Part shown: positions 9,210 to 18,015 of the stretch, in pieces | Layout of the letters: each line of letters starts with the position of its first letter | How positions within the stretch are numbered: position 1 is the stretch's first letter | NCBI GenBank assembly: GCA_902806205.1 | Contig: CADCVR010000078.1 | Coordinates: 1-52,957 of the forward strand | Direction: 5' to 3' | Length of the DNA stretch: 52,957 nt | Origin: an uncultured Solirubrobacteraceae bacterium | GTDB lineage: Bacteria > Actinomycetota > Thermoleophilia > Solirubrobacterales > Solirubrobacteraceae | Notes under the pieces: model-generated | What the model saw: only the letters and a program-made list of their open reading frames with translations | What the model was told of the DNA's origin: nothing | Database searches by the model: none | Made by a program: the position numbers and the translations under genes

Positions 9210-10703
9210 TCAGGACAGCGTCGCCACCACCCTCGCGGCTTTGAGCAGGTCGGGAGCGGTGAACGATTCGGCCTGCCCGTAGGTGGGCCGCCAGTCCGGG
9301 TCCTGCCGTAGGTAGGACTGCCCGTCGCCCTGGATCAGCCCGACGATGACCTCGGCGACGATCCTGCCGCCCACCGGGCCGAGGCGCTCACCGTTGGCCA
9401 TGACCTGGGCCTCGCGCAGGACGTAGAACCACAGCGGCGTGCGATCGTCGAGATGCAGATCCTTCAGGTCTGCCAGGTGGGACTTCTCGAGCGCGGGCAG
9501 CTTCATCGCCTTGGCCACGCGCTGGCCCGACGGCACTTTCATGGTCAGGCTGCGGAGCAGGTTGCGGGTCGCCAGCGAGTTCGGCTCGCCCTGCGGCTGG
9601 CCCATCAGTGCGAAGAGGACCGACGAGATCCTGGTGTCGATCGTCTTGCTCTGGCGCTGTCTGCCGTCCGCGAAGTCGAAGAAGGTCTGCCAGTCGATGA
9701 ACCGGCGCGCAGCTCTCCTGCGGCCGCGCAGGTCGGCGGGGTCGTCCCCGTCAGCGGCTGCCGGGTCGAAGATGTGGGCGAAGAACTGCTGTGCCGCGTC
9801 CGTGGCGCTGGTGCCGAAGTTCGCCCGGTAGCTCGGTCGGACCTGGGAGTGACCGAAGCGGTAGGCCCCGACCGAGAACTCCACGGGTATGTACGGCTCG
9901 TTGCGCCACTTGAAGTGCTTGCGGCCGCGGGTCAGGACGTCGTTGACCGTGTCTGCCCCGACGGTCCTCGGCAGGAACTCGTGCACGATGAGCCACTGGT
10001 AGTGCCAGCGCACGACCCGTTGGGCCTCGGTGAAGAGCTCCCCGGCGGTGTAGCCGGGACCCAGATCCTCTTTGAGGTCACCGACCACCCGGTTGTGAAA
10101 GCGCAGCAGTGCCAGATGCAACTGGGAGACGATGAGGTTCTCGTCGTTGCGAGGGTCACCGATGAGGGCGACCTTCTGGCTGTTGCGCGGAAGGTCGTAG
10201 CGTGGCTCGTTGCCGATCGAGACCGCGGCCGAGCCCGGGATCTCCTCGGTCAGCAGCGTCGTCCGCCCGCCGTCGACGCTGGTGTCGTAGAGGTGGGGAG
10301 ACGCTCCCGGGCCGCTCCCGTAGACGCTGTCGAGGTCCAACGCCGGGATGCGGAAGTTGCGTATCGACTCCGGGTCCTGCCGGCGGGCCAGACTCGAGGT
10401 CGGATCGAACGTCATGTCGTGGTCGAGGAATTGACCCAGGAAGGTGAACCCGGCCGTGAGCGCCGGATTGTCGGGATTGTTGACCCGCTTCGCCGGGTCG
10501 GTTATCAGCGTGATCGGATCGGAAGCCGGGTCGCCCGCGTCCATCAGACCTCCGGGCGCACCGAGCTCGGTGAGCGCGCCGCGGATCAGCGGGGTGTCGG
10601 CTGCGAACGGCGGCAGCGTCCCGAACAGGCGCCCGAAGCGGCCCTGATCGTAGAACACCGACTCGGGAGTGGACTCGCCGAGACTTGCATGACCGTGCGA
10701 CAT
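9210..10703 (-). CDS. animal-type haem peroxidase (peroxinectin/myeloperoxidase superfamily)
   Basis: The gene encodes 497 residues. The distal site FLGQFLDHDMTFD contains Gln91, Asp94, His95 and Asp96, matching Gln/Asp (haem ester)/distal His/Ca ligand of myeloperoxidase. The Ca-binding and substrate segment is ALDLDSVYGSG (121-131). The catalytic Arg185 and the second haem-ester Glu188 lie in GDPRNDENL. The proximal His285 is in VGAYRFGHSQVRP. All key residues are present, so an active peroxidase with covalently linked haem is expected. No signal peptide is seen. ATG 10703 has GGAAGG about 10 bases upstream. It is the last gene of the minus-strand oxidative cluster, 224 bases after the large regulator gene. 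A 13-bp element shared with the cyclooxygenase-like gene lies about 50 bases upstream. Confidence 0.95.
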   Translation of the reverse strand: MSHGHASLGESTPESVFYDQGRFGRLFGTLPPFAADTPLIRGALTELGAPGGLMDAGDPASDPITLITDPAKRVNNPDNPALTAGFTFLGQFLDHDMTFDPTSSLARRQDPESIRNFRIPALDLDSVYGSGPGASPHLYDTSVDGGRTTLLTEEIPGSAAVSIGNEPRYDLPRNSQKVALIGDPRNDENLIVSQLHLALLRFHNRVVGDLKEDLGPGYTAGELFTEAQRVVRWHYQWLIVHEFLPRTVGADTVNDVLTRGRKHFKWRNEPYIPVEFSVGAYRFGHSQVRPSYRANFGTSATDAAQQFFAHIFDPAAADGDDPADLRGRRRAARRFIDWQTFFDFADGRQRQSKTIDTRISSVLFALMGQPQGEPNSLATRNLLRSLTMKVPSGQRVAKAMKLPALEKSHLADLKDLHLDDRTPLWFYVLREAQVMANGERLGPVGGRIVAEVIVGLIQGDGQSYLRQDPDWRPTYGQAESFTAPDLLKAARVVATLS

Positions 10704-10791: not shown

Positions 10792-10965
10792 GTCGCCGAT
10801 CGCGACGAGGCCGACCCCGGTCACCGCTGTCGGCCGGTCCTACGCCGAGCTGATCCCCGGCGCGTCGCTCGCCGTCGAGGAGGAGGGCAAGAGCCCGCTG
10901 GCCTGGCAGGGCGGCCAGCTCTGCGGGTCATCGCCGAGCTCGCGGCGAGGGCATGGGCGACGTGA
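10792..10965 (+). pseudogene. alpha/beta-hydrolase C-terminal remnant, multiply frameshifted
   Basis: The plus strand encodes DRDEADPGH, then in another frame YAELIPGASLAVEEEGKSPL followed by AWQGGQL, then back in the first frame RVIAELAARA. Together these are the usual last strand-helix of alpha/beta-hydrolases, with the DPGH segment around the catalytic His region. At least two frame changes are needed and the core of the enzyme (nucleophile elbow) is missing. The 3' end overlaps the last 38 bases of the opposing regulator gene. Confidence 0.65.
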
Positions 10966-13900
10966 GCCCGGCCAGGCGCCCCTCGATCGCGGTCGTCAGC
11001 AAGGGCGCCCCGAACGTCCGGGTCCGCGCGAGCGCCGAGCGGAGGTGCCGGGCGGCCAGGCGGCGATCCCCCCAGGTCTCGGCGAGGCGGGCAAGGTAGG
11101 AGTCGACGGGTCCCCAAAACGCGGAGTAGGCGACGACGACGTTGCGGTGCGCGTGCGGGGCCAACGCCGTGTAGAGCGCCTCGGCGCGGGGGACGTCCTC
11201 CAGCTTTGCGCACAGCTCGCTCAGGAGGGCGAGCGTCGTCAGCCAGTACATGCCGCGCGGGACGGCCTCGGGCCCTCGCGCCAGCTCCCGGTCGTAGATC
11301 GCACGGGCCGCCGCCACGTCACCGGCTTCGAGTCGCAGCATCGCCAGTGCGCTCGGCCAGCCGGACTGGCGCCCGCCGCCGTGGGCCAGCTGCTCGACCA
11401 GCCGCAGCTGCTGCCTTATCGCGTCGTCGCGGTGGCGAACCGAGAACAGCTTGGCCGCCCACGTGCTGACCGCATCTTGCATGTGGGCGCGACGGCCATG
11501 GCGCAGCCCTTCGTCCGCGCACTGAGCCGCCAGCTCGACGTCGCCCGCGAGCTCGGCCCATATGCCCCTCCAGCCGGCGGCGACGCTCAACAGGAGAGGC
11601 TGGCGCAACTCGGCGGCGAGGCCTTCCAGCTTGGCCTGCTCGTGCTTGGCGGTTTCGAGCTCGCCCAGCTCGAACAGGTCGTAGAGGCGCCAGTGATGGT
11701 GCTCGGCGGTGAGCTCCCGGTGCTCGCCGGCCACCGACGCGAGCTCGTCCATGAGCGCGAGGCGCTCCGGAAGGTGCCGCACGTCGGTCAGCGTGACGTG
11801 TCGCGCCAGAAGCGCTCCGGTCAGGATGTTCGCGTCGCCGAGCTTCCGCGCCGTCTCGAGTGCCTCAGCGCTCGTCCTGATCGCCTGGTCGCTCTCGCTT
11901 GGGTAGCCGAGGTGCTCGGCCAGACGGGAGAGCAGCAGGGCTCGCAGCGCCGTCTCCTCGGCGGGAAGGGTGGCAACCGACTCTTCGAGCAGCTCTCGGT
12001 AGCGCGGCTCGACGTAGGCCACCTCGAACCAGCGCTCGCCGAGCCCCAGGGCCGCCCGGGCGAGTTGCCCGGCGTCGCCACGGCGCGACGCGCTCTCGGC
12101 GGCGGCCAGGAACGTGCGGCGGGCGGCGTCGCCACCGGCATGCCACTGCACGCGGCCCAGCGCGAGGAGCATGTCGCAGCGCTCGGACTCGTCCGCGTCG
12201 CCCAACAGCTCCAGCGCGAGGCGGAAGTGCTCTGCCGCCTCCTCGTAGGCCAGGAGCTCGGTCGCGCGCGCCCCCGCGGCTATCGCGTAGCGCCGCGCGG
12301 GACCGTCGCCGGCGACGTGCCGGGCGAGGAGGAAGTGGTGGGCGAGCTCGGCGGGATTGGTCGCCTGCGGGCCGGCCACCCGCTCGAGCGCCTCGGCGAC
12401 GCGGTGGTGTAGGCGGACGCGGCGGCTCCCGGTCAGCTGGCGGTACAGCACCTCGCGCACGACGGCATGGGAAAAGGTGAAGACGTCGACCGGGTGGGTC
12501 AGCTCACCGATCAGGCCGGCGTCGATGCCCTCGTCCAGCGCGGTCATGAGGTCCTCGGGATCCGCGTCGGACACGCGTGCGAGCACGTCGAGGGGAAAGC
12601 TGCGGCCGATGACCGAGGCCGCCACCAGCGCCTCCGCGCCGAGCGGCGACAGGCGACGCAGGCGTCGCGTGATGACTTCCGCGACCCCCTCGGGGACGCC
12701 TGCCCGCTCCAGCGAGCTCTCGGTCACCGCCTCGGGGGCGGGCGACTCCGCGTCGTCGAGCGCGCGAAGGGTCTCCTCGATGAAGAACGCGTTGCCTGCG
12801 GTCTGCTCGCACAGCCGGTGGACGAAGCCAGGCGTGACCGCCCTGCCGAGCCGGTCGGTCACGAGGGCCTGCGTCTCGGCCTCTTCGAGCCCGCCGAGCT
12901 TGAGGCGCTCGAAGCGCCGGTCGCGACGGATGTCGGCCAGCACGTCGCGCAGGACGTGCCCCGGGCCCGCCTCCACGTCCCGGAAGGTGCCGAGAACCAG
13001 GACGTTCCCGAGCTCGGGCTCCCGGAGCAGGTGACGCAGGAGCAGCAGCGAGGGTTTGTCGGCCCAGTGCAGATCGTCGAGGACGAGGAGCACCGGCCAC
13101 TCGCGGCCGGCCCGCTTGAACACGTCGACGACCGCTTCGAAGAGGCGGTAGCGCAACGTCTCGTGGTCGCTGGGACCGGGCGCGCCCGGCGCGCCCAGAT
13201 CCGGGATGAGCCGGCTGAGGATCTCCCGCTGCCCCACCGTGAGCGGTTGGGCTCCCCGGACGAGCAACGGGCGCAGCGCCTCGACGAACGGCTGATGGGG
13301 AAGCAGGGCGTCCTCGTCGGCACGACCGTAGAGCGTCGCCCCGCCGCTGCGGTGGACCTCCTCGGCGAAATGGGTGGCCAGGCGCGTCTTGCCGACCCCA
13401 GGCTCGCCGACGAGCAGGACCAGCTCCGTCCGCCCCGCGCAGACCGCGCCCCACAGCTCTCTCAGGCGGGCCAGGCACCCCTCGCGGCCGACGAAGGCGC
13501 CGTCGCCGAGCGCGTGGGTCGCCGGCGCCGGGGCACCGGCCGGGTCCTCGCCGGTGACCGCGCCGGGCCACGGTGCCGGCGGCCCTGAGGCGTCGTCGTG
13601 CAGCAGCCGCTCATGCAGCGCGACGTGCTCGGGTGACGGAATCGTGCCGAGCTCGTCGCGTAGGAGCGTGCGCAGCCGATCGAAGGTGCGCACCGCCTCG
13701 GCGGCGTCCCCGCGCCGGCTCTGCGCCTGCATGAGCAGCGCGTAGGCGCTCTCACGGAACGGCTGGCGCTCGATGACCGCCCGGGCCATCCGCTCGGCGG
13801 CAGGCAGGTGGTCGCCGCCGAGCATCAGAGCGGCTTGAGCCGAGGCTTCGAGGGCCCGGGGCTCCAGCTCGCAGAGCTCCCTGCGCCAATCTTCGACCCA

Positions 13901-14350
13901 CGCTCCGTGGAGGCCTGGGAGCAGCGGCTGCGCCAGCACCCGCAGCGCGGCCTGCGCCGCACCGAGCGCCGTCGAAGCGTCCTTGGCCGCAAGCGCACGC
14001 TCGGCCTCCTGCGTCTGCTCGACGACGCGCTCGACGTCGACGTCAGAGCCGTCGGGGAGCTGCAGCGTCAAGGCTGCTCGGCCCGTGATCAGCTCGGGCC
14101 CGACGGTCCGGCGGACCTTCGCCAGAACGCTACTCAGCGCGGCGTCGGGGTCCGCCGGGGGGCGCTCGGACCACAGCACGTCGAGGACCTCGTCGCGATC
14201 GACGGCCCGGTGACGGTTGAGGACCAGGTAGGCGAGCAACGTGCGGCCCTGGCGCCCGGGGAGCTCGGCGACGACCGAGCGCCCGTCGCGTCGGACCTGC
14301 AGCTCTCCGAACAGCGCGATCCCCAGCGGTACGGCGAGGCCTTGCGTCAC
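10928..14350 (-). CDS. large SARP/BTAD-AAA transcriptional activator (LAL-like)
   Basis: The gene encodes 1140 residues. The order is an OmpR-type winged helix (about 10-100, FGELQVRRDGRSV...VLWSERPPAD), a bacterial transcriptional activation domain (about 105-250), and an AAA/NACHT-like ATPase. The ATPase has Walker A GEPGVGKT at 315-322 and a Walker B motif LLVLDDLHWAD about 100 residues later. A long helical TPR-like C-terminus (about 650-1130) follows. Such proteins are ATP-dependent activators of secondary-metabolite or stress genes. No C-terminal LuxR HTH is present; DNA binding is through the N-terminal domain. GTG 14350 starts four bases after the stop of the cyclooxygenase-like gene, so the two are translationally coupled and the regulator probably controls this cluster. 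The C-terminus overlaps a hydrolase remnant on the other strand. Confidence 0.93.
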   Translation of the reverse strand: MTQGLAVPLGIALFGELQVRRDGRSVVAELPGRQGRTLLAYLVLNRHRAVDRDEVLDVLWSERPPADPDAALSSVLAKVRRTVGPELITGRAALTLQLPDGSDVDVERVVEQTQEAERALAAKDASTALGAAQAALRVLAQPLLPGLHGAWVEDWRRELCELEPRALEASAQAALMLGGDHLPAAERMARAVIERQPFRESAYALLMQAQSRRGDAAEAVRTFDRLRTLLRDELGTIPSPEHVALHERLLHDDASGPPAPWPGAVTGEDPAGAPAPATHALGDGAFVGREGCLARLRELWGAVCAGRTELVLLVGEPGVGKTRLATHFAEEVHRSGGATLYGRADEDALLPHQPFVEALRPLLVRGAQPLTVGQREILSRLIPDLGAPGAPGPSDHETLRYRLFEAVVDVFKRAGREWPVLLVLDDLHWADKPSLLLLRHLLREPELGNVLVLGTFRDVEAGPGHVLRDVLADIRRDRRFERLKLGGLEEAETQALVTDRLGRAVTPGFVHRLCEQTAGNAFFIEETLRALDDAESPAPEAVTESSLERAGVPEGVAEVITRRLRRLSPLGAEALVAASVIGRSFPLDVLARVSDADPEDLMTALDEGIDAGLIGELTHPVDVFTFSHAVVREVLYRQLTGSRRVRLHHRVAEALERVAGPQATNPAELAHHFLLARHVAGDGPARRYAIAAGARATELLAYEEAAEHFRLALELLGDADESERCDMLLALGRVQWHAGGDAARRTFLAAAESASRRGDAGQLARAALGLGERWFEVAYVEPRYRELLEESVATLPAEETALRALLLSRLAEHLGYPSESDQAIRTSAEALETARKLGDANILTGALLARHVTLTDVRHLPERLALMDELASVAGEHRELTAEHHHWRLYDLFELGELETAKHEQAKLEGLAAELRQPLLLSVAAGWRGIWAELAGDVELAAQCADEGLRHGRRAHMQDAVSTWAAKLFSVRHRDDAIRQQLRLVEQLAHGGGRQSGWPSALAMLRLEAGDVAAARAIYDRELARGPEAVPRGMYWLTTLALLSELCAKLEDVPRAEALYTALAPHAHRNVVVAYSAFWGPVDSYLARLAETWGDRRLAARHLRSALARTRTFGAPLLTTAIEGRLAGLTSPMPSPRARR

Positions 14351-14354
14351 CGCG

Positions 14355-15944
14355 TCACCGTGCCTGTCCGCCGGCCCTCGTCATCGTGATCGCGTAGGGA
14401 CGGTCCCTTCGCGTGACGTTGCGGTTGACGACGTCGGACAGGTTGCTCGTCGTGTGGATCTCCTGCCAGCCCAGCGGCGAGAGCGTCTCCTCGTCGTACA
14501 CGCGCGGGGCGAGCAGCGGATTGGTCAGCGCCTGGGAGAACGCGTCCACCCCGACCATCCGCCCGATCAGCGGCGGCAGGACCGAGTTCGGGCGCGGGTC
14601 CTCGGCGAAGAGCCCGACGTAGAACTCGATCGCCTGCGGGCCGTCGTAGCACTCGGCCAGGCCGGCGCGGATGCGTGGGTCGCTCGAGATCTGGTCGAAG
14701 CCGGTCACCCGCGGGTAACGGCAGGCCTCGCGGTAGTCGTTGTAGGAGGCAAGCCGCACGGCGCGGCCCTTCTCGACGCTGGCCCTCTCGGCCGGAAGCA
14801 GCTCGGGAGCGGTGTTGAACAGCCCCACCCGGCCCGCGCGCTGGCTCGACGCCTCTTCGAGCAGGGGGCCGAGCCCGTGTTCGGGTACGAAGCCCGGATC
14901 GAGCGCCGTCTCCTGCAGCGGTCGCATCCGCCCCCCCGCCAGCAGCTCGGACGGGATGAGGCTGTGCCACCGGTAGAGGAGGTTGAACTCGCTGGCCATG
15001 CGGTTCGTGCGCATCCACGGTGCGCGCCGGAAGGCCTTCGCCCCTTCGAGGGTGAAGCGGAAGTGGTACGGCGTGATGTGGTTGATGTACTCGTCGACGA
15101 CGAGCTTGAGCAGGATCACGATGTTGATCATGCGGGCGGTCTGGAAGAGGCGCTCGTCGTCCCAGCCGTAGGCCGCCTCGAGCCGGGTCGCCAGCCGGTT
15201 GTGCTCGCGGAGGAACAGCGTGTTCATCAGCACGTGGCCGATCTGGATGTTCCCCGTGTCGGTCCCGATCGCGAAGAGCTGCTCGCGGGCCCGGGGATCG
15301 AACATCTCCTCGCGCGCGACGGTGATCGAGGGAAAGCGCTTCGTGCCGTCGGCGGCGTAGAGGCGCGGGGGGAAGGTCTCCGGCCCGTCGCCCTCGGACG
15401 CCAGCAGACCGCCCTCGTACGTGCGCAGCTCGCGTGTCGCCTCCTGCGTCAATCCGTAGATCTGGCACAGGTCGATCTCGTGCGTCGAGTCGTTGCGCCT
15501 GGGATCGGGAGGTGCACCCGGCAGCTTCGGGCGGTCGCTGCGCAGAAAGCCGTCGGTGAACCACTGCGCGAAGTACGCGAACAGGACCGTCGACTTCTGG
15601 CAGAGGTCTTCCTCGGCGCGCGCCGGTGACGGCCGCCGGAACAGCTCGACGAGGCGGTCGACCGGGGGCAGGCCGCCCTCGCGGTGGAGCGGCCGGAGGT
15701 GCCGGCCGTCGTAGCGGCGATCGGTGAGCGACTCCCACGACGTGTAGTCGCTGCGCGTGCTGAACGGATCTGGTCGCGGGTCCATCTTCGCCGCCGCCCG
15801 CGAGATCAGCGTGCGGTTGACCAGGCGGCTCAGCCACCCCACGGAGTGAACGCCGTCCCAGACCCGGGCTCCCCGGGTGAGCAGCGCGAACTCGAGTTTG
15901 TTGCCAAGGCCGTCGCGCTTCTTGCTCCGCTGGTGTCGGCTCAC
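14355..15944 (-). CDS. cyclooxygenase (prostaglandin H synthase)-like haem protein
   Basis: The gene encodes 529 residues. The alignment by eye to animal PGHS runs almost end to end. Equivalents (ovine PGHS-1 numbers) are Arg49 (Arg120), Gln127 (Gln203), Tyr293 (Tyr355, in PYHFRF), Tyr324 (Tyr385) and His327 (proximal His388) in FNLLYRWHSLIP, and Ser470 (Ser530, in DAFSQALTNP). LFLREHNRLA and DERLFQTARMI are also shared. The distal His207 is replaced: FAQWFTDGFL has Asp131 where PGHS has FAQHFTHQFF. The enzyme therefore keeps the fatty-acid carboxylate and tyrosyl-radical residues but has lost the normal peroxidase acid-base. No EGF domain, signal peptide or membrane segment is seen. GTG 15944 is the best start; no ATG lies before the conserved region. 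Fatty-acid oxygenation is inferred. The gene is coupled to the downstream regulator. Confidence 0.9.
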   Translation of the reverse strand: MSRHQRSKKRDGLGNKLEFALLTRGARVWDGVHSVGWLSRLVNRTLISRAAAKMDPRPDPFSTRSDYTSWESLTDRRYDGRHLRPLHREGGLPPVDRLVELFRRPSPARAEEDLCQKSTVLFAYFAQWFTDGFLRSDRPKLPGAPPDPRRNDSTHEIDLCQIYGLTQEATRELRTYEGGLLASEGDGPETFPPRLYAADGTKRFPSITVAREEMFDPRAREQLFAIGTDTGNIQIGHVLMNTLFLREHNRLATRLEAAYGWDDERLFQTARMINIVILLKLVVDEYINHITPYHFRFTLEGAKAFRRAPWMRTNRMASEFNLLYRWHSLIPSELLAGGRMRPLQETALDPGFVPEHGLGPLLEEASSQRAGRVGLFNTAPELLPAERASVEKGRAVRLASYNDYREACRYPRVTGFDQISSDPRIRAGLAECYDGPQAIEFYVGLFAEDPRPNSVLPPLIGRMVGVDAFSQALTNPLLAPRVYDEETLSPLGWQEIHTTSNLSDVVNRNVTRRDRPYAITMTRAGGQAR

Positions 15945-16115: not shown

Positions 16116-16706
16116 ATGCCCACCATCGCCAAGTCCCGAATGCGCCGCGGCGCCGGAGAGGTGAGCGGGCTCGTCGAGCGCGCAGCCGCCCGCGACGACA
16201 CGGCGTGGCAGGAGCTCGTCGACGAGTTCGGCGGCCTGGTGTGGTCGATCACGCGGTCGCACAGGCTGGCCGACCAGGACGCCGCGGACGTCTCCCAGAC
16301 GACGTGGCTGCGGCTCGTCGAGCACGTCGAGCGCTTGCAGGAGTCCCACCACGTGGGCGCGTGGCTGGCGACGACAGCGCGGCGCGAGAGCCTCCTGACG
16401 ACGCGGCGCTCGGCCCGCCTGGTCCCGGCGGGCGACGACTTGCCCGAGCTCGCAGACGACGCCCCGGCCCACGATGCGCGACTGCTCGAGCAGGAGCGCG
16501 ACGACGCGCTGTGGGCGGCGTTCGACCGCCTGGACGAACGTGACCGCACCCTCCTGCGCCTGGTCGTGACCGAGCCATCGCCGAGTTATGAGAAGGTCGG
16601 TGCGGCGCTCGACATGCCCGTCGGGAGCATCGGCCCCACGCGTGGCCGCGCGCTCGCGCGCCTGCGCGACCAGATCGAGGACGCCGAGCTCCTCCAGGCC
16701 GTCTGA
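16116..16706 (+). CDS. ECF-family RNA polymerase sigma factor
   Basis: The gene encodes 196 residues. Region 2 is visible as FGGLVWSITRSHRLADQDAA followed by DVSQTTWLRLVEHVERL, with the -10 recognition helix. Region 4 is FDRLDERDRTLLRLVV followed by SYEKVGAALDMPVGSIGPTR and LARLRDQI. No extra C-terminal SnoaL-like domain or adjacent anti-sigma gene is seen. ATG 16116 is used; GTG 16110 two codons upstream is an alternative. The gene is divergent from the cyclooxygenase-like gene (171 bases between starts) and convergent with the vanadium haloperoxidase gene. Being inside the cluster, it is a candidate regulator of the peroxidases, but no promoter consensus could be matched. Confidence 0.93.
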   Translation: MPTIAKSRMRRGAGEVSGLVERAAARDDTAWQELVDEFGGLVWSITRSHRLADQDAADVSQTTWLRLVEHVERLQESHHVGAWLATTARRESLLTTRRSARLVPAGDDLPELADDAPAHDARLLEQERDDALWAAFDRLDERDRTLLRLVVTEPSPSYEKVGAALDMPVGSIGPTRGRALARLRDQIEDAELLQAV

Positions 16707-16773: not shown

Positions 16774-18015
16774 CTAGATCGGGCGCAGCACGTTGTCGGC
16801 GACGTACTCGCCGAGCGCGTTGCCCGAGTGGAACCCGTGATCGCCGTCCCACTGGAAGTGCACGCCCAGGTACACCCGGCTGCGGGCGTTCTCGCGCGCG
16901 GCCTCGGTGAAGCTGTTGAACGTCCGCTCCACCCCCGCGGGCAGGTTCGGGTCCTCGGTCGTGGCGGTGAACGTGACGTTGTCCGTGTCGAAGTACCGGC
17001 GCATGATCGCCGCATGCACGGCCCCGAACGTCGCGTGCCCGGAGACGTAGGCCGGGAACGGCGGCGAGAAGTGCTTGTTGTTCGCCGGGTTCTTCAGCAG
17101 TGGCTTCCAGTTCGCCTGGGCGGTCGTCGCCGGGTTGCCGTCGGTCGCCGCGAGCTTGATCGCCGTCTCCGGGCGCCAGAGGTCGAGGTGGGTGTCGTAC
17201 TTGGCGTCCCAGGCGACCACCGAGGCGTCCGCCATGCCCAGCGCGACGAGCGCGAACAGGCGGGCGTTCTCGACGAGGTCCAGGCCCTTCTGGTCGGACA
17301 CGACCTTGGTGATCTCGAACAGCTGTCCGGGCGGCTTGTACGTCCCGTCGAGGTCGTTGGCCCAGAACAGCGCGATCTCGGTCTCCTCGGAGGTCCGGGT
17401 CGCCGAGTTGCTGCGCCCGAGCTCCTTGACCTCGTCGAACTGCGCCGTGTACTCGGGGCTCGTGAGCATCTCGGCCTTGGAGACGTAGCCGCCGGGCTGC
17501 GGCGGACGGAACGACTGGCCGTAGGGCGAGCAGAACGGCTTGAGGTTCCCCCAGTTCGGGCCGGCCGCCGGGCCGGTGCCGGTCGGTCTCCAGTCGCCCG
17601 CACTGGTGCCCGGGACGTAGGGGGCGTTGTCGTCGGCACCGTCGCCGCGGCGCTTGGCGATCATCGCCGCGGCGGTCGCCGTGCCGACGGCCTCGCCACC
17701 CGCGACATCGGCGCCGGGGTCGAGCGCGGCGATCGCGGCCGACAGGCGGGTGGCGAGCGGCACGGTCGTGCTCGGGAACGCTGCCGCGAGGGTGTCGTGA
17801 GCCGCATGGGCCACCGCGGCCTCGATCGACGCCGTGGGTGCGGCGGGGACCGAGGCGAGGTAGGGACGGTGCGTCGACGGCGCGATCGAGCTGACCGCGT
17901 CGTACATCGAGGCGTGCATCATCGCGCCGCCACGGGCGATGGGGCCGGGAGGGCCGCCGACCTGGCGGACGACCTCGAGGAGCACGTCGTTCCAGTGGGT
18001 GATGGCATCGGGCAT
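16774..18015 (-). CDS. vanadium-dependent haloperoxidase (PAP2-type)
   Basis: The gene encodes 413 residues. The vanadate site is visible: Lys272 and Arg281 in KYDTHLDLWRPETAI, Ser325-Gly326-His327 in PAYVSGHATFG, and Arg380 and His386 in SRVYLGVHFQWDGDHG. The six-residue Arg-His spacing is the same as in fungal vanadium chloroperoxidase. Enzymes of this group use hydrogen peroxide to oxidise halides to hypohalous acid, or act as related phosphatases. No signal peptide is evident (MPDAITHWNDVLLEVV). ATG 18015 has a strong AGGAGAAG ribosome site. The gene is convergent with the ECF sigma gene. Together with the two haem peroxidases it makes a third peroxide-using enzyme within 9 kb. Confidence 0.95.
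   Translation of the reverse strand: MPDAITHWNDVLLEVVRQVGGPPGPIARGGAMMHASMYDAVSSIAPSTHRPYLASVPAAPTASIEAAVAHAAHDTLAAAFPSTTVPLATRLSAAIAALDPGADVAGGEAVGTATAAAMIAKRRGDGADDNAPYVPGTSAGDWRPTGTGPAAGPNWGNLKPFCSPYGQSFRPPQPGGYVSKAEMLTSPEYTAQFDEVKELGRSNSATRTSEETEIALFWANDLDGTYKPPGQLFEITKVVSDQKGLDLVENARLFALVALGMADASVVAWDAKYDTHLDLWRPETAIKLAATDGNPATTAQANWKPLLKNPANNKHFSPPFPAYVSGHATFGAVHAAIMRRYFDTDNVTFTATTEDPNLPAGVERTFNSFTEAARENARSRVYLGVHFQWDGDHGFHSGNALGEYVADNVLRPI

What the first reader, a model, noticed from the sequence alone, without database searches (positions are those of the whole stretch)
14355..15944. Bacterial cyclooxygenase homologue that keeps the fatty-acid site but replaces the distal histidine with aspartate
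By eye the protein aligns nearly end to end with animal prostaglandin H synthase. Equivalents of Arg120 (R49), Tyr355 (Y293), Tyr385 (Y324), His388 (H327), Ser530 (S470) and Gln203 (Q127) are present, but FAQWFTDGFL has D131 at the position of distal His207 (FAQHFTHQFF in PGHS). Retaining the carboxylate anchor, radical Tyr and aspirin-site Ser while losing the peroxidase acid-base predicts an oxygenase without normal peroxidase function. It might then need a separate peroxide source to form its radical, and haem peroxidase and haloperoxidase genes sit beside it.
Basis: partly seen in the sequence, partly recalled or inferred. Interest (0 to 1): 0.85.

Follow-up and report, generated by a model that had tools for sequence, protein, structure and literature searches.

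The report
Bacterial cousin of cyclooxygenase, distal aspartate
A soil actinobacterium carries a relative of the aspirin-target enzyme cyclooxygenase in which one haem-pocket histidine is an aspartate; this swap turns out to be the hallmark of a large, already characterised family of bacterial fatty-acid oxygenases rather than an oddity of this gene.

Summary
The gene is real, on the MINUS strand at 14355-15944 (529 aa), a full-length cyclooxygenase-fold protein (phmmer E 2e-55 to COX-2; AlphaFold model pLDDT 91.6; Z 44.8 and rmsd 1.9 A over 484 residues to COX-2). D131 does sit at the place of distal His207. But the swap is not peculiar to this protein: all 91 members of a multi-phylum bacterial clade have Asp there, including Nostocaceae proteins that match every published residue number of the characterised Nostoc punctiforme linoleate 10S-dioxygenase, whose FTDSF (143-147) motif is published. 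The haem-peroxidase and haloperoxidase neighbours are absent beside the closest homologue; what is conserved there is a SARP-type regulator and a divergent ECF sigma factor. Across the family, 51 of 84 loci carry an adjacent catalase-related or P450 gene (never both), fitting a hydroperoxide-making dioxygenase handing on to a partner; the window locus has neither. Its one unusual trait is Thr230 where most members have Arg in the distal pocket. Best reading: a member of the known 10S-dioxygenase family, forming a fatty-acid hydroperoxide by a Tyr324 radical. Interest is modest.

The parts
14355..15944 (-). Cyclooxygenase-fold fatty-acid dioxygenase (P0001, 529 aa, GTG start)
   Evidence: PF03098 E 3e-42; PGHS-2 E 2e-55; AF2 model pLDDT 91.6, COX-2 Z 44.8, rmsd 1.9 over 484 residues; 43% identical over residues 5-521 to Nostocaceae 10S-DOX orthologues
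15552..15554 (-). Codon of D131, position of distal His207
   Evidence: Asp in 91/91 relatives
15564..15566 (-). Codon of Q127, position of Gln203
   Evidence: Q in 90/91
15255..15257 (-). Codon of T230, position of COX Val291 in the distal pocket; Arg in 81/91 relatives
   Evidence: published as a conserved Arg in DOXs (PMC13049297)
14973..14975 (-). Codon of Y324, radical Tyr385
   Evidence: 91/91
14964..14966 (-). Codon of H327, proximal haem ligand His388
   Evidence: 91/91
15066..15089 (-). YINHITPY (residues 286-293): central substrate motif, Tyr348 to Tyr355 of COX; also YINHITPY in the Nostoc relative L076
14541..14543 (-). Codon of A468, the true Ser530 equivalent
   Evidence: Ala487 in 10S-DOX (PMC13049297)
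15798..15800 (-). Codon of R49, proposed Arg120 equivalent; register ambiguous, not conserved
10928..14350 (-). SARP/AfsR-type regulator with BTAD and AAA_16 ATPase domains, starting 4 bases after the dioxygenase stop; conserved next to the dioxygenase in L038 (65% identity) and near it in L088 (48%)
16116..16706 (+). ECF sigma factor, divergent from the dioxygenase; conserved in L038 (67%) and L088 (58%)

Best explanation
The protein is a bacterial fatty-acid haem dioxygenase of the family of Nostoc punctiforme linoleate 10S-dioxygenase. Shown here: the fold, the residue equivalences, the clade-wide Asp, and the absence of a relocated His. Inferred: the haem, bound through H327, is oxidised by a trace hydroperoxide (probably its own lipid product), with D131 instead of His assisting weakly; the ferryl haem oxidises Y324 to a radical; the Tyr radical abstracts a hydrogen from an 18-carbon unsaturated fatty acid (oleate or linoleate) lying along the YINHITPY helix; O2 adds once, probably at C10, and the hydroperoxide is released unreduced. 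No endoperoxide or prostaglandin is expected. Because the enzyme cannot reduce its product well, relatives usually sit beside a catalase-related or P450 enzyme that uses the hydroperoxide. The window's subgroup lacks such a neighbour, and its gene forms a unit with a SARP-type regulator and a divergent ECF sigma factor instead.
For: COX-2 is the best solved match by sequence and by fold (Z 44.8 for COX against 29.6 for alpha-dioxygenase). Asp in 91/91 at the distal position, Tyr385 and His388 in 91/91, Ala at Ser530 in 88/91. L083, L091 and L109 (Nostocaceae) are 542 aa with F143-TDS-F147, I306, T310, Y342, G469, I483, D486 and A487, i.e. all the published residue numbers of 10S-DOX (against PMC13049297), and each has a catalase-related gene downstream. 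The window protein is 43% identical to them and has the same central motif. Adjacent catalase-related gene in 31 of 84 loci and P450 in 20 of 84, never both, against 2 loci with a hit further than 1.5 kb away in 608 kb of flank. Recombinant NpDOX forms 10(S)-HPODE (PMC9579011).
Against: No activity data for the window protein. It differs from 10S-DOX at V464 (Ile483), Y442 (Phe) and T230 (Arg), so regio- and stereochemistry may differ. The window locus lacks the usual partner gene: the genome has no P450 match and a single catalase, an ordinary one on another contig. The identity of L083, L091 and L109 as 10S-DOX orthologues rests on residue numbers and gene context, as the N. punctiforme sequence itself was not in hand.
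Confidence: 0.8

Rival explanations
1. D131 works as the acid-base catalyst in place of His, as the distal Asp is thought to do in DyP-type peroxidases, so the enzyme still makes compound I efficiently and keeps a peroxidase or peroxygenase activity.
For: Asp is invariant (91/91), not merely a lost His, and most members pair it with an Arg at the Val291 position (81/91), an Asp plus Arg distal set like that of DyP peroxidases (PMC10427876 describes Asp149 and Arg239).
Against: The window protein has Thr instead of that Arg, and for a B-type DyP a cited paper title says Arg, not Asp, is essential for peroxidase activity. The adjacent hydroperoxide-using partners suggest the product leaves unreduced.
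Confidence: 0.3
2. The D131/T230 subgroup has lost peroxide activation altogether and depends on a peroxide or peroxidase supplied by the neighbouring haem peroxidase or haloperoxidase genes.
For: Both genes are within about 5 kb; the subgroup lacks both His and Arg in the distal pocket.
Against: Both neighbours consume peroxide. Neither has a match in the 13.5 kb around the closest homologue, whereas regulator and sigma factor are conserved there. Asp-bearing NpDOX makes its product as a recombinant enzyme.
Confidence: 0.05
3. An alpha-dioxygenase-like enzyme that makes 2-hydroperoxides.
For: Same superfamily; weak sequence matches to alpha-dioxygenases.
Against: Fold match far weaker than to COX (Z 29.6 against 44.8). 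The alpha-dioxygenase-like rows of the same bacterial order have His at the distal site and form a separate clade.
Confidence: 0.04

Closest known systems
Linoleate 10S-dioxygenase of Nostoc punctiforme (Brash et al. 2014; AF2 analysis in PMC13049297)
   Same: Length class, fold, distal Asp in FTDxF, W at COX-204, Tyr385, Trp387, His388, Tyr348, central motif YINHITPY, Ala at the Ser530 position, D-A in the terminal motif
   Different: About 43% identity (through Nostocaceae orthologues); Thr230 instead of the conserved Arg; V464 for Ile483; Y442 where 10S-DOX has Phe; no catalase-related hydroperoxide lyase next door
Animal prostaglandin H synthase (COX-1/COX-2)
   Same: Whole catalytic domain and membrane-binding helices (model residue 13 aligns with COX residue 84); Tyr385, Trp387, His388, Gln203, Tyr348, Tyr355
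   Different: Distal His207 is Asp; Ser530 is Ala; Gly526 is Val; Arg120 not conserved in the family; no EGF domain
Fungal 8R/10R-dioxygenase-P450 fusions (linoleate diol synthase family)
   Same: Haem dioxygenase of the COX fold; the bacterial family often pairs with a P450, as a separate gene
   Different: Fungal enzymes keep the distal His (PMC9579011, PMC13049297) and are fused to the P450
Alpha-dioxygenases
   Same: Superfamily fold, radical Tyr, proximal His
   Different: Distal His kept in the alpha-dioxygenase-like relatives surveyed; much lower fold similarity (Z 29.6)

Membership tests
Bacterial linoleate 10S-dioxygenase (NpDOX) family | Full-length homology to NpDOX | tested here: met
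   43% identity over residues 5-521 to Nostocaceae loci that match all published NpDOX residue numbers; same 92-row clade against alpha-dioxygenase-like rows, support 100 (quick tree)
Bacterial linoleate 10S-dioxygenase (NpDOX) family | FTDxF motif with Asp at the His207 site | tested here: met
   D131, FTDGF at residues 129-133; 91/91 Asp
Bacterial linoleate 10S-dioxygenase (NpDOX) family | Radical Tyr, proximal His, Tyr348, Ala at Ser530 | tested here: met
   Y324, H327, Y286, A468
Bacterial linoleate 10S-dioxygenase (NpDOX) family | Conserved Arg at the COX Val291 site | tested here: not met
   T230; Arg in 81/91 of the clade. A variable trait, not taken as defining, since several members lack it
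Bacterial linoleate 10S-dioxygenase (NpDOX) family | Adjacent catalase-related hydroperoxide lyase or P450 | tested here: not met
   None at the window locus; 33 of 84 loci of the clade lack one, so common but not defining
Bacterial linoleate 10S-dioxygenase (NpDOX) family | Oxygenates oleate or linoleate at C10 (S) | not testable with these tools
   Needs enzyme assay
Prostaglandin H synthase (cyclooxygenase) | Distal His207 | tested here: not met
   D131; no relocated invariant His
Prostaglandin H synthase (cyclooxygenase) | Aspirin-site Ser530 | tested here: not met
   A468
Prostaglandin H synthase (cyclooxygenase) | Arg120 carboxylate anchor | tested here: inconclusive
   R49 or A50 by alignment; R49 not conserved in the family
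Prostaglandin H synthase (cyclooxygenase) | EGF domain before the membrane-binding helices | tested here: not met
   The structural alignment starts at model residue 12-13 = COX residue 83-84
Alpha-dioxygenase | Closest fold and clade | tested here: not met
   Z 29.6 against 44.8 for COX; alpha-dioxygenase-like rows form a separate clade
Peroxidase-cyclooxygenase superfamily (PF03098) | Pfam model over gathering score | tested here: met
   145.2 bits against a cut-off of 25

The most novel reading that the evidence does not exclude
The window protein stands for a five-member Solirubrobacterales/Acidimicrobiia subgroup of the 10S-dioxygenase family that has lost both distal peroxide-activating residues (His replaced by Asp, Arg by Thr) and also has no hydroperoxide-converting partner next door: an essentially peroxidase-dead radical oxygenase started only by its own product, whose released lipid hydroperoxide is an end product or signal tied, in the window and its closest homologue, to the adjoining SARP-type regulator and ECF sigma factor.
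Probability: 0.15. Interest if true: 0.55.

Novelty: new member of a known kind. Interest (0 to 1): 0.3.

Why it matters
The survey shows that loss of the distal His is an ancient, fixed trait of bacterial cyclooxygenase relatives across Actinomycetota, Cyanobacteriota, Chloroflexota, Planctomycetota and Pseudomonadota, not an accident in one gene. Together with the either-or pairing with a catalase-related or P450 partner, it gives a testable picture of how oxygenase and hydroperoxide-using steps are split between two haem proteins in bacteria, where animal COX keeps both in one. The Asp/Thr subgroup offers a natural test of whether the distal Arg is needed to start the tyrosyl radical.

Tried and rejected
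Relocated distal His: rejected; every invariant His of the clade has a COX counterpart at a non-distal position. Aspirin-site Ser at S470: rejected by three alignments and a published correspondence. Conserved peroxide-supplying neighbours: rejected; no homologue of either gene near L038. Correlation of Arg230 loss with lack of a partner gene: 8 of 9 non-Arg loci lack a partner against 25 of 75 Arg loci (Fisher p 0.002), but the tree allows only 2-3 independent comparisons, so it is not established. Viral homologues: none found. COX-2's exact place in the tree is unresolved because of its long branch. Model coordinates are not readable here, so distances above the haem were not measured. Brash et al. 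2014 is not held in the library, so its content is taken from later papers that cite it.

Full report
What was checked. The ORF is on the minus strand, 14355-15944, 529 residues from a GTG. It matches Pfam PF03098 (E 3e-42), and by sequence its nearest solved structures are prostaglandin H synthase 2 and 1 (E 2e-55 and about 1e-50, residues 20-509). An AlphaFold2 model built on 45 aligned relatives has mean pLDDT 91.6 and pTM 0.93. Its best structural matches are all COX (Z 44.8, rmsd 1.9 A over 484 residues; alignment starts at COX residue 84, so the membrane-binding helices are present and the EGF domain is not). Peroxidases and alpha-dioxygenases follow far behind (Z 32.2 and below).

Residues. 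Pairwise and in a 99-row alignment including mouse COX-2: Gln203=Q127, His204=W128, His207=D131, Val291=T230, Tyr348=Y286, Tyr355=Y293, Tyr385=Y324, Trp387=W326, His388=H327, Gly526=V464, Ser530=A468. R49 aligns with Arg120 in one register and is adjacent to it in the other, and few relatives have Arg there. All four invariant His of the family have a His partner in COX at a non-distal position, so no His has moved above the haem.

Survey. Relatives came from the window's own order (full-length or near-full-length homologues in 9 other genomes among 232 genomes searched), plasmids and one genome per species (271 candidate places, best 80 kept). Position 207 is Asp in 91 of 91 rows of this clade, from Actinomycetota, Cyanobacteriota, Chloroflexota, Planctomycetota, Verrucomicrobiota, Gemmatimonadota and Pseudomonadota; the alpha-dioxygenase-like haem proteins of the same order have His. 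The 80 kept loci are the best matches to the query, so the survey leans towards its nearer kin.

Link to a characterised enzyme. PMC13049297 reports for N. punctiforme 10S-DOX 542 residues, F143-tds-F147 at the place of COX F205-thq-F209, Tyr342, Ile306, Thr310, Gly469, Ile483 (Gly526), Asp486 and Ala487 (Ser530), and states that COX, 8R-DOX and 10S-DOX differ at the distal His207 and at Val291, where the DOXs have a conserved Arg. Loci L083, L091 and L109 (Nostoc foliaceum, Desmonostoc muscorum, Anabaena catenula) encode 542-residue proteins with each of these residues at these numbers, and each has a catalase-related gene immediately downstream. The N. punctiforme enzyme works with a catalase-related 10S-hydroperoxide lyase (PMC13049297) and makes 10(S)-HPODE as recombinant protein (PMC9579011). 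So an Asp-bearing protein of this family is a working dioxygenase, and the substitution itself has been described.

Gene neighbourhood. Of 84 clade loci with at least 1.4 kb on both sides, 31 have a same-strand catalase-related gene and 20 a P450 gene within 1.5 kb, none both; beyond 1.5 kb, in 608 kb of flank, only two loci have a hit. Pfam confirms catalase and P450 for examples; two of the catalase-like proteins tested fall below Pfam detection and are called so by similarity or by the record's annotation. The window locus has neither. It shares with L038 (68% identical dioxygenase) a SARP/AAA_16 regulator directly downstream (65%), a divergent ECF sigma factor (67%) and a DoxX-like gene (62%); L088 keeps the regulator and sigma factor. 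Neither the haem peroxidase (9210-10703) nor the haloperoxidase-like protein (16774-18015) has a match at those loci. The genome has no P450 match and one ordinary catalase elsewhere.

What may be new. The window protein and four relatives (L004/L038, L005/L042, L006/L041, L039) have Thr where 81 of 91 members have Arg at the Val291 position; they form one clade (support 92, quick tree), and none has an adjacent partner. The link between Arg loss and partner loss is suggestive (Fisher p 0.002) but rests on 2-3 independent comparisons and is not established.

Mechanism. Shown: fold, residues, conservation, context. Inferred: trace hydroperoxide oxidises the haem, Y324 forms the radical, one O2 is added to an 18-carbon unsaturated fatty acid, most likely at C10, and the hydroperoxide is released unreduced. 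Whether D131 takes over acid-base work, as the distal Asp is proposed to do in DyP peroxidases, is open; the missing Arg argues that this subgroup is weak at it.

Verdict. The residue observation is correct and not chance; the idea of an oxygenase without normal peroxidase function is plausible, but the residue change behind it is already published for the family; the exceptional status, the aspirin Ser, the carboxylate anchor and the neighbour-supplied peroxide are not supported.

Noticed in passing
L035 3715-4971, L098 4558-5808, L062 4643-5908 and 17 further loci: Bacterial 10S-DOX-like genes with a same-strand P450 gene next to them (mostly upstream; Streptomyces, Actinomadura, Rhizobium and others), reminiscent of the fungal dioxygenase-P450 fusions but as two genes; I found no description of this pairing in the papers searched.
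   Followed up: partly
window 15255-15257 (T230); L038, L039, L041, L042: A five-member clade replaces the family's distal-pocket Arg (COX Val291 site) with Thr; other rare states are Val (L007, L009), His (L011, L012) and Asn (L037).
   Followed up: partly
window 16774-18015 (-): Protein with vanadium-haloperoxidase-like signatures (LWRPETA, YVSGHATFG, GVHFQWDGDHG); its PAP2 score is just under Pfam's cut-off.
   Followed up: no
window 9210-10703 (-): Second haem peroxidase of the genome (PF03098), with the usual Q-F-L-D-H-D distal motif, so an ordinary peroxidase that keeps its His.
   Followed up: partly
L033 4033-4974 and L107 7647-8672: Small catalase-like proteins beside the dioxygenase that Pfam's catalase model does not detect at E 0.001, though they resemble the other catalase-related partners.
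   Followed up: no
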